Source of the DNA: Chloroflexota bacterium | Lineage (GTDB): Bacteria > Chloroflexota > Anaerolineae > Caldilineales > Caldilineaceae | DNA: 10,242 nt | Direction of reading: 5' to 3' | Assembly (NCBI GenBank): GCA_003577005.1 | Contig: QEUW01000304.1 | Coordinates: 1 to 10,242, forward strand | Part shown: positions 3,568 through 7,329 of the stretch, piece by piece | Layout: the number at the start of each line of letters is the position of its first letter | How positions within the stretch are numbered: position 1 is the first letter of the stretch | Program-made: the position numbers and the translations under genes | The notes under the pieces: generated by a model | What the model saw: only the letters and a program-made list of their open reading frames with translations | Databases searched by the model: none | Told to the model about the DNA's origin: nothing

Positions 3568-4218
3568 TCAGCCTTTCTTCTCTGGCCGCGGTCCATACCC
3601 GAGCAATAGCGGTTCAGCCCAGACGGCCCAGTTCCAGCGGGCATCGCCGAGGCCATCGGTCATAAACTGGAGGATCATATCCTGGCCGGCCAGGCTGGGC
3701 AGGTCGAGGAGAAAACGTTCCCACTTGTTGGTCTGCTTGGTGATGCTCCAGAGACGGATGCCGTTCACGTAGATGCGAAAGGCGCACCAGTTGTCCCCTT
3801 CCATGAGCGCGCCGTCGCGCAGACCAATGCCAAAGCGCAGACGCAGGCTGTCCACCTGGGGAGGAATCCGCACGCTGTACTCGCAGACCGCGCTGCCAAT
3901 GGTGGGCGGGTGCATCCAGAGCGCCATCTGTTGCACCATACCGCAGGTAGCTTGATCGACCTTGATCTCCATGCCACTTTGGGTGCGCGTCCCTTGTTTG
4001 CGGGCGGCCGGGAAGCCTTCAAGGAAATCGTATTGCCAGATGAGCGCCTGGTCGGCTGCGGGCGCGACCTCTTCCTCCAGCAGGCTGTGCCAGAGCTCTT
4101 CCTGCCACTTGAGGTAGCTGATAAATTGCGAAAGCTGTGTCAGCGACTGGTCGTTGAGGTCGGCGATGCGGCGCACGATCGCGTCGATGGTCTCTCTGCG
4201 CGCGTCTACTTTTGTCAT
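3568..4218 (-). CDS. Hypothetical protein: helical N-terminus plus jelly-roll-like domain
   Basis: I do not recognise a named family for this 216-residue protein. Residues 1-50 are helical and charged; the segment LSQFISYLKWQEELW resembles short DUF2281/antitoxin-like helices, but weakly. Residues about 80-207 are rich in beta strands and aromatic residues and look like a carbohydrate-binding jelly roll, with a G-D-x-W/V...F strand (GDNWCAFRIYVNG, 141-153), WERFLLDLP (166-174), a G-Q-D-x-I-L-Q strand (178-184) and a closing W-x-W-A-x-W-A-E-P-L-L-L (196-206). The same order of motifs is found at the end of the partial protein beginning at 9911. There is no signal peptide or membrane segment, so the domain appears cytoplasmic, which is odd for a sugar binder. 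It lies between the HNH gene (48 bp) and uup (17 bp) on the same strand, so it is probably in their transcript. The Shine-Dalgarno is poor. The gene is real by length and context; function is unknown. Confidence 0.75.
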   Translation of the reverse strand: MTKVDARRETIDAIVRRIADLNDQSLTQLSQFISYLKWQEELWHSLLEEEVAPAADQALIWQYDFLEGFPAARKQGTRTQSGMEIKVDQATCGMVQQMALWMHPPTIGSAVCEYSVRIPPQVDSLRLRFGIGLRDGALMEGDNWCAFRIYVNGIRLWSITKQTNKWERFLLDLPSLAGQDMILQFMTDGLGDARWNWAVWAEPLLLGYGPRPEKKG

Positions 4219-4266
4219 GGTTGCAAGAATGGATGGCGAGATAACCGTGTAGATGATGGCTGGCCG

Positions 4267-4812
4267 CTACGCCATCACCGGTTCGGCGACAACTGGGCGC
4301 TGCTCCCGGGTCATACCCATGAGTTGTTCCCAGCGTGCGGCAGCGATAGGGTTGCTCAGGAGAACAAGGGCGACGTAACTCGGTTCAAAAGGCCGGCGAA
4401 CCAGGCTCATCAGCGCTTCGTCTGGGGTCAGCGAACCTTTTTTTTGATTGCAGCGCTTACAGGCGGTGACCAGATTTTCCCACCCATGTCTGCCACCCCG
4501 GCTGCGCGGGATCACGTGATCGACCGTCAAATTTTGGCGGCCCGGGCTTTCACCACAATATTGGCAGGTGTAGGCGTCGCGCAACATCACTGCCGCGCGC
4601 GTCGCCGGCACGCGCCGGTGGGGTAACCGTACATAGTGCACCAGCCGAATCACAAGCGGAACAGGGATGGCGTGATTGGCGCTGGTAAACATCTGCTGGG
4701 TCGCCTCTAGCAGTTCCGCCTTTTCGCGCAAGAGCAGAACGATTGCTCGTCGCACCGATACCAGACTCAACGGCTCATAGCCTGCATTCAGCACCAGTAC
4801 TTGCTTCGACAT
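4267..4812 (-). CDS. HNH endonuclease family protein
   Basis: This 181-residue protein carries a complete HNH (beta-beta-alpha metal) nuclease domain. A structural zinc site is formed by C83 and C86 (CQYC) together with C118 and C121 (CKRC). The catalytic DH pair is D98-H99 in [11 protein letters not shown], and N122 follows in CNQKKG. The sequence [15 protein letters not shown] is typical of a widespread stand-alone HNH family found in Cyanobacteria, Actinobacteria and Chloroflexota. The N-terminal ~75 residues ([19 protein letters not shown]) are the conserved extension of this family. The C-terminal 50 residues are less conserved. It is the first gene of a likely operon with the 3568-4218 gene, uup and perhaps the arabinofuranosidase, and has the best sigma70-type promoter of the minus-strand genes in the window. 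Its cellular role is not established; DNA repair or mobile-DNA defence are guesses. No intron or restriction partner is nearby. Confidence 0.92.
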
Positions 4813-4828
4813 ACATCAATTCTTTATT

Positions 4829-4855
4829 CCACAATTGCCACAGATGCCACAGTCC
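4829..4855. repeat. Three imperfect 9-bp tandem units in the HNH leader
   Basis: Read on the plus strand, three adjacent nonamers begin CCACA: CCACAATTG, CCACAGATG and CCACAGTCC. They lie between the predicted transcription start and the ATG of the HNH gene, so they would be in its 5' untranslated leader. They could be an operator, a leader structure or chance. Confidence 0.4.
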
Positions 4856-4871
4856 CTGATGTGACGTCCCA

Positions 4872-4900
4872 ATTGTACCAGGAGTAGCCTATGCTTACAA
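4872..4900 (-). promoter_or_regulatory. Sigma70-like promoter for the HNH gene
   Basis: On the minus strand there is a -35 hexamer TTGTAA (complement of 4895-4900, four of six matches), a 17-bp spacer and a -10 hexamer TACAAT (complement of 4872-4877, five of six). Transcription would start near 4865, leaving a leader of about 50 nt before the ATG at 4812. It is the only good candidate upstream of the HNH-hypothetical-uup-GH51 gene run. Confidence 0.55.
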
Positions 4901-4949
4901 ACTAGTTATAATCTGCTTATGTTAACAGAAGATTAGAGCCAGACATCAA

Positions 4950-5327
4950 CTACTGGGCAACATAGCTCGCCCGTTGCAAAATGCCCCACAAAAAGGCGCA
5001 TGTGAGCGCCATCGCCAGCGTCTTGACCCGGTCGTCCTCCAGATTGCCAAAATAGGTGTAGGCGGCCGGCAGCGTGACCACCGCAACCACACCATAAAGA
5101 ATATGGAGGAAGGGTCGCGGCAGCGCCACGCCAAGCCCAATGAAATAGAGGTAGCCTCCCAACAGCCCCTGGGCAACGAGCAACAGTTCACCGACCACAG
5201 CCGCTCCGATCCACGAACCATCCAACCCGCGGCCACGGATTCGCAAGAAGAGCGCCCACAGGGCAAGAATACCGATAAAGAGCGAAGCCGTACTCGCAAG
5301 CCGGATATGGACTTCCACCAAAGACAT
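4950..5327 (-). CDS. Small four-helix membrane protein
   Basis: This 125-residue protein is almost entirely hydrophobic, with predicted membrane helices at about 9-29, 38-66, 72-93 and 101-118 and short polar loops. The start at 5327 is supported by an AGAGGA site (complement of 5332-5337) four bases upstream. H7 sits at the start of helix 1 in EVHIRLAS and H75 in helix 3 in RPFLHILYG, with Q53-G54 in LLLVAQGLLGGYLYF. This spacing recalls one four-helix half of the heme A synthase family (CtaA/COX15), where His residues bind heme, but the likeness is short and I treat it as a hypothesis. It has no partner oxidase gene here. It stands alone between the HNH promoter region (137 bp) and the Tat lipoprotein gene (135 bp), all on one strand. 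A real gene; function unassigned. Confidence 0.8.
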   Translation of the reverse strand: MSLVEVHIRLASTASLFIGILALWALFLRIRGRGLDGSWIGAAVVGELLLVAQGLLGGYLYFIGLGVALPRPFLHILYGVVAVVTLPAAYTYFGNLEDDRVKTLAMALTCAFLWGILQRASYVAQ

Positions 5328-5462
5328 GCTGTCCTCTTATCAGCGCTAGATTATGAGAAAGTAAAAAAGATAGAAGTTACGCAGTTGCTCCGGTGCGATG
5401 CACTTGCAAAGCGCGTTGCACCTCTAGCCGACGAATGACCCCTACGACAGCAACACCCAAAA

Positions 5463-6791
5463 TCATGCAGGTGCATGGACGCCCAGGTATTGCTGTAAGA
5501 CGGCTGCGGCCGGGCCAAGTACATCGTAGCTTTCCCAGTCGGCGCTGGCGGCCAGGGCATAGATGGCGCCACCCAAGACGTACTCATCCTGGCGCATGGC
5601 CTCGTCATACCAGACCAGTTGCTCCACATAGGCACCCGGCCCCCAGAGACCATAGCCATGCTCGGCCCAGTAGCCCTGGAAATCCTGCCAGCCGCGCGCA
5701 TCGGGTGGGCCAGGGCGGTTGTTTTGCACATAGCCATCCACCCCGATCTCGGTAAAGACCAGCGGGATCACCAGCCCGCGCGGTTTCAGGATCTGATTGT
5801 AGACCTGGCGATAGCGAAGCGTCAACCAGCCGGTGTCGTGGGCGCTTACCCCTGGATACCGTCCCTGGTTTTCGCGCGTGCTCATGAAGTAGATAGTGGG
5901 CGCCGAATACTCATGTAGCCCCAGCCAACCGTTGTATTGCTGGGCCGCCTGCACCGCGGGAAGAAAGTGTTCCCACAGCTCCAGCGGTGGTTGGCCGGTG
6001 CCAAAATTGCCGATCACGCTGCGGATGCCGCGCTCCGCCAGTAGCCGCGTCCGCTCGGCCTCGAGGTCGGCCAGGCGCCGCATCTCGTCGGGATTGGCTG
6101 CCACCGGTTCGTTGTACGACTGCCAGCCATCATAGTAGGGGCGGCGGGCGTCATCGTCGGCAATGGGCAAAAGTTGCTCGACAAACGCACGCGCCGTCGC
6201 CACTGGATCAAGCGTACTCAACTCCAACTGGGGCAGGTCGATCCGGCCCACAAGCAGTGTCCGTGGGGAGGCTTCTTTGATATGGCGGACAAATGTTGGG
6301 TCATGTTCCAGCGTGGAGATGAGAGCAACACCTCCCGTCTCCAACAGATCGAATATCTGTGGATGATTGCGCGCCACCACAAAACCCAACTTGCTTGGCG
6401 GGCCAGGCGGGAAGGGGGTCATTGTCGGTGTAGGCGTATCCGTTGGGCGGGGCGTATCGGTGGGTTTGGGTGGCGTAGGTGTCAGGGTGGGCTCTGGCGT
6501 GACCGTGGGTATCATGGCCACCTGCGAGCTGTTCTCCACCCACGGTAGATAACTGCGCACCTGCCCCCCTGGCGTAGTCAGTAAGCTTGACTGTGCCACC
6601 GGGGTCCCCGTACCGGTTGCGCTGGCAGTGGGACCCGGCGTTGGTGTGCGATCACGGCCACACGCCGCGGCCAATATCGCCACAGCCCCACTAGCCAGCC
6701 CACCAAGGAAGCGCCGGCGGTTGACCGGCGCCCCGGGCGCGGTAGGTGGTGTTACCTCCACTGTGCTTTTATTTTCATAAACGTCGGTCAC
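5463..6791 (-). CDS. Tat-exported lipoprotein with probable clan GH-A-like TIM-barrel domain
   Basis: This 442-residue protein starts with GTG at 6791. Its N-terminus has a twin-arginine motif (NRRRFLGG, R25-R27), a hydrophobic stretch and a lipobox LAAAC with C44, so it should be exported folded by Tat and lipid-anchored outside the membrane. Residues about 92-132 are a Pro/Thr-rich spacer (repeated TDTP, TPTP) that probably lifts the domain off the surface. Residues about 134-440 look like a (beta/alpha)8 glycosidase-type barrel: a candidate acid/base Glu E228 in [10 protein letters not shown], an aromatic-rich strand GLHEYSAPT near 291-299 and a candidate nucleophile E348 in [10 protein letters not shown]. 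The 120-residue gap between the two Glu fits clan GH-A. I cannot place it in a numbered GH family, and substrate and activity are unknown. It is transcribed away from the SelW-like gene across a 271-bp gap. The Shine-Dalgarno is weak (GAGAG). Confidence 0.85.
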
Positions 6792-7050: not shown

Positions 7051-7056
7051 AAGGAG
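7051..7056 (+). promoter_or_regulatory. Strong ribosome binding site AAGGAG of the SelW-like gene
   Basis: AAGGAG sits six bases before the ATG at 7063 and directly abuts an in-frame ATG at 7057. The spacing favours 7063. This site matters because, if UGA were a stop, it would serve a 13-residue peptide only; its strength supports translation through the UGA at 7102. Confidence 0.8.
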
Positions 7057-7062
7057 ATGGTA

Positions 7063-7329
7063 ATGGAACCGGTGACGGTCAGTATTGAATATTGCATGAA
7101 GTGAAACTATACTCCCCGCGCCGTCAGTTTGGCGGACGAACTTCTGCGCAACTATGGCCATCAAATCAAATCGCTGACCCTGCTCCCTTCTTCAGGAGGT
7201 CGTTTTGAAGTGATGGTCGACAACACTCTCATCTTTAGCAAAGCAACGCTACAACGCCACGCCGAACCCGGCGAGGTGGCAGAGTTGTTTGCCCAAAAAA
7301 CAGGCTTTGAACCCGCCGAGCAAACTTAA
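7063..7329 (+). CDS. SelW-like (Rdx family) selenoprotein with in-frame UGA
   Basis: Reading the TGA at 7102-7104 as selenocysteine gives an 88-residue protein with a thioredoxin-like fold of the Rdx family (SelW/SelT/SelH relatives), of normal length. It opens with a beta strand (EPVTVSIEYC), then the redox motif C11-M-K-U14, then NYTPRAVSLADELL as the first helix. A second strand (SLTLLPSSGGRFEVMVDN), a strand with LIFSKATLQRH and a final helix (PGEVAELFAQKTGF) follow. All of these are family landmarks, and the family has CxxC or CxxU at exactly this place. Frame is kept across the TGA without any shift. The start at 7063 is set by AAGGAG at 7051-7056. A TTG at 7129 is the only start after the TGA; it would drop the first strand, the redox motif and half a helix. 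A stem-loop after the UGA fits a bacterial SECIS. At least five other genes here end in TGA, so the code is standard. Probable role: thiol-selenol redox chemistry in the cytoplasm; partner unknown. The stop is TAA. Alternatives are a sequencing error in a Cys codon or a decayed gene. Confidence 0.88.
7102..7104 (+). other. In-frame TGA predicted to encode selenocysteine (Sec14)
   Basis: The codons around it read TGC ATG AAG TGA AAC TAT, giving C-M-K-U-N-Y. The position matches the second Cys or the Sec of the Rdx CxxC/CxxU motif. Sequence after the TGA is in the same frame and family-like to the stop at 7327. Confidence 0.85.
7119..7138 (+). promoter_or_regulatory. Putative bacterial SECIS stem-loop
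   Basis: Right after the UGA the RNA can fold with C7121-G7135, C7122-G7134, G7123-C7133, U7124-G7132 and C7125-G7131 around a 5-nt loop AGUUU. Two more pairs (C7119-G7138, G7120-C7137) follow below a bulged A7136. The loop begins about 21 nt after the UGA and has G at its second position followed by U. Bacterial SECIS elements bound by SelB lie within the coding region at about 16-37 nt after the UGA, with a short apical loop carrying an early G. An alternative pairing of CGCC (7119-7122) with GGCG (7131-7134) gives an 8-nt loop GUCAGUUU. Both satisfy the rule; folding was done by eye. Confidence 0.65.

What the first reader, a model, noticed from the sequence alone, without database searches (positions are those of the whole stretch)
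7063..7329. Bacterial SelW-like selenoprotein hidden by an in-frame UGA
The sequence shows a strong AAGGAG site, an ATG, 13 codons ending in Tyr-Cys-Met-Lys, a TGA, and then 74 codons in the same frame that are plainly the rest of an Rdx-family protein. The TGA is exactly at the second position of the family's CxxC/CxxU redox pair. Known: Rdx proteins (SelW, SelT, SelH) use CxxU in eukaryotes, and a few bacterial SelW-like selenoproteins have been reported from metagenomic surveys. Standard annotation would give a 66-codon TTG-started fragment with no active site. If this is Chloroflexota, it widens the range of the family.
Basis: partly seen in the sequence, partly recalled or inferred. Interest (0 to 1): 0.92.

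Follow-up and report, generated by a model that had tools for sequence, protein, structure and literature searches.

The report
Hidden SelW-like selenoprotein in a Chloroflexota bacterium
A small redox protein whose gene looks cut short by a stop codon is almost certainly read through with the rare amino acid selenocysteine; it belongs to an already known bacterial selenoprotein family, and databases often hold its relatives only as fragments.

Summary
Window 7063-7329 (+) reads as an 88-residue Rdx-family protein (PF10262, E 6e-20) with one in-frame TGA at the second position of the CxxC/CxxU pair. All 56 genome loci found carry TGA there. The window is syntenic with Caldilineaceae (Chloroflexota) contigs, and the closest such genome has selA, selB, selD and tRNA-Sec. 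The hairpin at 7121-7135 meets the published bacterial SECIS rules; across relatives it covaries, and its Ser codon is always AGY (67 of 67, against 16 of 87 for another Ser of the same genes). In 151 sampled genomes of the phylum, 54 of 54 with the TGA form have selA, against 68 of 97 without. It is not a new kind: SelW-like CxxU proteins led two marine surveys (2005, 2008), and a 2026 review lists the family. Added here: wide presence in Chloroflexota; heavy mis-annotation (86 of the 120 listed database homologues start after the TGA position, 13 show Trp there); and a SECIS hairpin in one of two registers 4 nt apart. The window's own genome is not held, so its machinery is inferred from relatives.

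The parts
7051..7056 (+). Shine-Dalgarno site AAGGAG, 6 bases before the start codon
   Evidence: sequence
7063..7329 (+). SelW-like (Rdx family) selenoprotein gene, 88 residues with Sec at position 14, TAA stop
7093..7104 (+). CxxU redox motif (TGC ATG AAG TGA)
7102..7104 (+). in-frame UGA, read as selenocysteine (inferred)
7121..7135 (+). predicted SECIS hairpin: 5-bp stem CCGUC/GGCGG, loop AGUUU; 21 nt between UGA and loop (22 nt and a GUU loop if the A-U pair closes)
   Evidence: model in PMC13188914
7129..7329 (+). 66-codon TTG-started fragment that a standard gene caller would give
   Evidence: such fragments of relatives seen

Best explanation
The gene encodes a small thioredoxin-like protein of the Rdx (SelT/SelW/SelH) family. 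The ribosome reads the UGA at codon 14 as selenocysteine, because SelB with Sec-tRNA binds the hairpin at 7121-7135 just downstream. Cys11 and Sec14 then form a CxxU redox pair. Shown by computation: the family, the TGA at the catalytic column in relatives, the hairpin and its covariation, the machinery in the nearest relative, the synteny. Inferred: that this organism has the machinery, that Sec is really inserted, and that the protein is an oxidoreductase; its partner is unknown.
For: Family; relatives of solved structure 2fa8, 3dex, 2p0g, with CxxC where this has CxxU in the two alignments shown. TGA at the column in 56 of 56 loci and at 54 of 80 Rdx places in 151 genomes; 21 of the 120 listed database homologues (of 494 found) have CxxC there. 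Hairpin: AGUUU loop with G second, 5 bp (6 with the A-U pair), 21 nt spacing, -9.2 kcal/mol with its neighbours, within all four limits of the published model (PMC13188914). Constraint on bases rather than residues: Ser at +8 uses AGY in 67 of 67, against 16 of 87 (FSK Ser) and 11 of 51 (IPS Ser) in the same genes; synonymous difference is 0.38 in codons +1 to +11 against 0.85 after them (L001), and 0.49 against 0.71 (L002). Covariation: in 30 contexts with GTCAGT one wobble pair is C-G 26, U-A 3, A-U 1, 30 of 30 paired, none of 10,000 permutations as good. An exact 5-bp stem with 5-nt loop in one of two registers: 80 of 85 Sec contexts, 0 of 20 Cys contexts. Machinery in 33 genomes (33 of the 56 loci given): selA over cut-off in 32, selD in 32, selB in 22, tRNA-Sec in 30. 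selA in 54 of 54 genomes with the TGA form, 68 of 97 without. Nine neighbouring genes and the gene itself in the same order on L001, 60-90% identity.
Against: The window's own genome is not held, so there is no direct proof of its Sec machinery. Its own hairpin is not more stable than expected (synonymous-shuffle z -0.28; dinucleotide z -0.63 to -0.99); the support comes from comparison. In a 71-nt piece the best fold is another one. Mean energy of the region does not differ between Sec and Cys forms. Rfam found nothing near the gene. One syntenic relative, G005, lacks selA, selB and a tRNA-Sec over the cut-off, perhaps because the assembly is incomplete; G002 lacks selD over the cut-off; G004's tRNA-Sec hit is marginal (49.5 bits); five of 33 genomes show no convincing selB.
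Confidence: 0.95

Rival explanations
1. The UGA is a plain stop; the product is a 13-residue peptide, and the rest is made, if at all, from the TTG at 7129 as a 66-residue fragment without an active site.
For: It is what standard annotation gives; 86 of the 120 listed database homologues begin after the TGA position.
Against: The codons before the UGA encode the first strand and the Cys of the motif, which recur in distant relatives; the hairpin bases are under selection; the fragment lacks the redox pair.
Confidence: 0.02
2. UGA is read as Trp (or another residue) by a changed genetic code in this lineage.
For: 13 of the 120 listed database homologues show CxxW.
Against: Of 10 other reading frames taken as genes in the window, 5 end in TGA as their stop (that none has an inner TGA is by construction of the ORF list). 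Trp would destroy the redox pair. Of the 13 CxxW entries, 11 lie on contigs of at most 1,045 bases, one on 1,257, one on 3,510, where gene callers may pick code 4 (inference); all 56 genome loci have TGA, none TGG.
Confidence: 0.01
3. Sequencing error or pseudogene: a Cys codon changed to TGA.
For: A single-base difference would do it.
Against: TGA at the same codon in relatives down to 41% identity; non-synonymous difference from L001 of 0.18-0.19 against a near-saturated synonymous one, on both sides of the TGA.
Confidence: 0.01

Closest known systems
Bacterial SelW-like (SELENOW-like) selenoproteins, PF10262, CxxU
   Same: Same domain, same CxxU motif, same place of the Sec, bacterial SECIS directly after the UGA; family listed in PMC13188914 and described in PMC1088965, PMC1794560, PMC2398784 (passages read)
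   Different: Lineage: Caldilineaceae-like Chloroflexota. In the searches I found no passage that ties SelW-like to Chloroflexota; PMC1794560 counts 3 Chloroflexi selenoproteins in 3 families, which the passages read do not name, and its supplements could not be opened
NCBIfam NF041051 SelTWH_Campy, SelT/SelW/SelH family (seleno)protein
   Same: Scores over the curated cut-off (92.6 against 88 bits)
   Different: The model's name points to Campylobacter; the organism here is Chloroflexota
Cys-containing Rdx proteins of solved structure (2fa8, 3dex, 2p0g)
   Same: Related by sequence (E 1e-10 to 5e-8)
   Different: CxxC instead of CxxU in the two alignments shown (2fa8, 3dex)

Membership tests
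Rdx family (PF10262) | Profile match over the curated cut-off along the whole domain | tested here: met
   71.7 bits, cut-off 22.6, profile 1-71 of 74, with C in place of U
SelW-like bacterial selenoprotein | CxxU: in-frame UGA at the second position of the family's CxxC | tested here: met
SelW-like bacterial selenoprotein | Sec/Cys exchange at that column among homologues | tested here: met
   CxxC in 21 of the 120 listed homologues; TGA in 56 of 56 loci
SelW-like bacterial selenoprotein | bSECIS: loop 3-9 nt, stem 4-16 bp, G in the first two loop bases, spacing 16-37 nt, MFE at most -7.5 | tested here: met
   (39- and 45-nt pieces) against the model in PMC13188914; comparative support
SelW-like bacterial selenoprotein | Sec machinery (selA, selB, selD, tRNA-Sec) in the same genome | not testable with these tools
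   window's genome not held; the nearest relative G001 has all four
SelW-like bacterial selenoprotein | Selenium in the protein | not testable with these tools
   needs mass spectrometry or 75Se labelling

The most novel reading that the evidence does not exclude
Within one selenoprotein family the SECIS hairpin has moved by 4 nt relative to the UGA and to a conserved protein stretch (mostly RAVS), more than once, each time keeping a stem of about 5 bp and a G (nearly always GU) in the apical loop, 21 or 17 nt after the UGA. The choice among synonymous Val codons follows the register: GTC in 39 of 39 Val-bearing register-A contexts, GTT (17) or GTG (14) in 31 of 31 register-B contexts (the register call itself uses that base). 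The family would be a natural experiment on how SelB tolerates SECIS spacing.
Probability: 0.55. Interest if true: 0.5.

Novelty: new member of a known kind. Interest (0 to 1): 0.38.

Why it matters
It shows a standard selenoprotein where annotation sees only a fragment, and puts the SelW-like family widely in Chloroflexota (TGA form in 54 of 151 sampled genomes of the phylum). Of the 120 best database homologues, 99 are truncated or carry Trp at the Sec position, so surveys of redox proteins and of selenium use may undercount it. The hairpin in two registers gives a comparative handle on what SelB needs from a SECIS element.

Tried and rejected
The own-genome search failed because no genome is held; relatives' genomes were used instead. 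Rfam gave one chance-level match elsewhere in the window and ARAGORN no tRNA. Mean folding energy after the UGA does not separate Sec from Cys forms; only the placed hairpin does. The window's own hairpin alone is not significant. A tree of Sec and Cys forms has too few columns to resolve the order of Sec/Cys changes (7 changes, 6). One Cys site counted was a false hit in L001 (E 280) and was dropped (20 Cys contexts, not 21). Most of the 20 Cys contexts are a separate paralogue (17 form one branch), so the contrast of 80 of 85 against 0 of 20 partly reflects protein sequence; the Ser-codon test inside the same genes is cleaner. A first register call by pair counts (A 47, B 28, both 21) was replaced by one by hairpin energy. 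The sequences are related, so permutation and Fisher values are not corrected for phylogeny. No structure was predicted.

Literature: 10 searches. PMC5029168 was searched for four terms without a hit. Others were seen as listings only. Supplements could not be opened.

Full report
What is there. Window 7063-7329 on the + strand has a Shine-Dalgarno site, an ATG, 13 codons, a TGA, 74 codons and a TAA. With the TGA read as a residue (C for U in searches), the product is an 88-residue Rdx protein: PF10262 at 71.7 bits, NF041051 at 92.6 bits and TIGR02174 at 56.6 bits, all over their cut-offs. The TGA falls on the second position of the CxxC pair, as the alignments to the solved Rdx proteins 2fa8 and 3dex show. 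The standard reading is a 66-codon TTG fragment.

Where it is. No genome is held for the window. Ten genes of the window, the SelW-like one included, lie in the same order on L001, a Caldilineaceae contig (ABC-F 84% over 300 residues up to the contig end, 216-aa protein 86%, HNH 90%, DUF951 87%, PIG-L 79%, the SelW-like gene 69%, the 440-aa protein 60%). Parts of the block recur on L002-L006. In all six the TGA gene stands beside the same divergently read gene for a 442-aa protein (with a sub-cut-off Tat-signal match). So the window is Chloroflexota, close to Caldilineaceae, and the gene is inherited in place.

TGA in relatives. The genome scan gave 56 loci, all with TGA at the codon, from Chloroflexota, marine Actinomarina and other groups; the search patterns favour this form. 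A profile search of 151 genomes of the phylum found 80 Rdx places in 71 genomes: 54 with exactly one TGA, 26 with no stop. All 54 TGAs lie at the CxxU column; of the 26, 20 were read and have Cys there. selA was over the cut-off in 54 of 54 genomes with the TGA form and in 68 of 97 without it (Fisher p 6e-7, not corrected for kinship).

Machinery. Of 33 genomes of TGA-form loci, selA is over the cut-off in 32, selD in 32, 31 of them with an in-frame TGA of their own, selB in 22 and tRNA-Sec in 30. The tRNA-Sec cut-off is lenient, since it is passed in 5 of 14 control genomes; 28 of 33 score 53 bits or more. The six Actinomarina-type genomes have selB hits below the cut-off; in all six the hit lies directly beside selA. 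G005 lacks selA, selB and a tRNA-Sec over the cut-off; G007, G009, G012 and G020 have no convincing whole selB. G001, the nearest relative, has all four.

The hairpin. Bases 7121-7135 form CCGUC-AGUUU-GGCGG, 21 nt after the UGA; the 39- and 45-nt pieces fold at -9.2 kcal/mol with this hairpin, an A-U pair and two more pairs, while a 71-nt piece prefers another fold. The published model asks for a 3-9 nt loop, 4-16 bp, a G in the first two loop bases, 16-37 nt spacing and at most -7.5 kcal/mol (PMC13188914): all are met. The window's hairpin alone is not unusual, but the relatives show selection on the bases. Over 53 contexts the region folds better than synonymous recodings (mean z -0.96, 87% below zero). 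The Ser at +8 is AGY in 67 of 67, while other Ser of the same genes are mostly TCN. One wobble pair covaries (C-G 26, U-A 3, A-U 1).

Two registers. 80 of 85 distinct TGA contexts hold an exact 5-bp stem with a 5-nt loop in one of two registers 4 nt apart (A only 38, B only 23, both 19), against 0 of 20 Cys contexts (one false Cys hit dropped). By hairpin energy 53 are register A (loop 21 nt after the UGA; the window is here), 31 register B (17 nt), 1 undecided. The loop has GU in 49 of 53 A (GG in 4) and 31 of 31 B. Val at +7 is GTC in 39 of 39 register-A contexts with Val, and GTT or GTG in 31 of 31 register-B contexts (the register call uses that base). On a weakly resolved tree the register needs 4 changes against 24.7 in shuffles; well-supported branches force 2. 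That SelB uses both is an inference.

Databases. Of the 120 listed homologues (of 494 found), 86 begin after the TGA position, 21 have CxxC and 13 CxxW. That CxxW stems from gene calling with code 4 is an inference; all 56 genome loci have TGA.

Known or new. SelW-like CxxU proteins are an established bacterial selenoprotein family: 48 genes, the most abundant, in the Sargasso Sea (PMC1088965); 427 Sec against 56 Cys in Global Ocean Sampling (PMC2398784); listed as predicted with high confidence in 2026 (PMC13188914). Chloroflexi had 3 known selenoproteins in 2006 (PMC1794560), and later papers report Sec formate dehydrogenases and SelD there (PMC4918011, PMC5736913, PMC3971608). No passage was found that ties SelW-like to Chloroflexota. 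Verdict: a well-supported new member of a known kind.

Noticed in passing
database homologues P0002-P0121: Most of the 120 listed database entries of this family are truncated after the TGA position (86) or carry Trp at the Sec position (13).
   Followed up: partly
genomes G001-G033: selD over the cut-off carries its own in-frame TGA in 31 of 32 genomes, so selenophosphate synthetase is probably itself a selenoprotein there.
   Followed up: no
G020 contig C358: tRNA-Sec, selD, selA and a partial selB match lie together on one contig of the genome behind L024, titled Verrucomicrobiales.
   Followed up: no
L036, L051: Contigs titled Euryarchaeota and Marinoscillum carry genes nearly identical to those of Actinomarina; perhaps binning contamination.
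   Followed up: no
L009, L049, L077, L082, L129: These five TGA forms have no exact 5-bp stem in either register; L077 and L082 also have a differing motif after the Sec (KTW, RTW). Their SECIS may be of another shape.
   Followed up: no
window 3568-6791: A block conserved with Caldilineaceae contigs (216-aa, HNH, 125-aa and 442-aa proteins), of which three proteins have no Pfam match.
   Followed up: no
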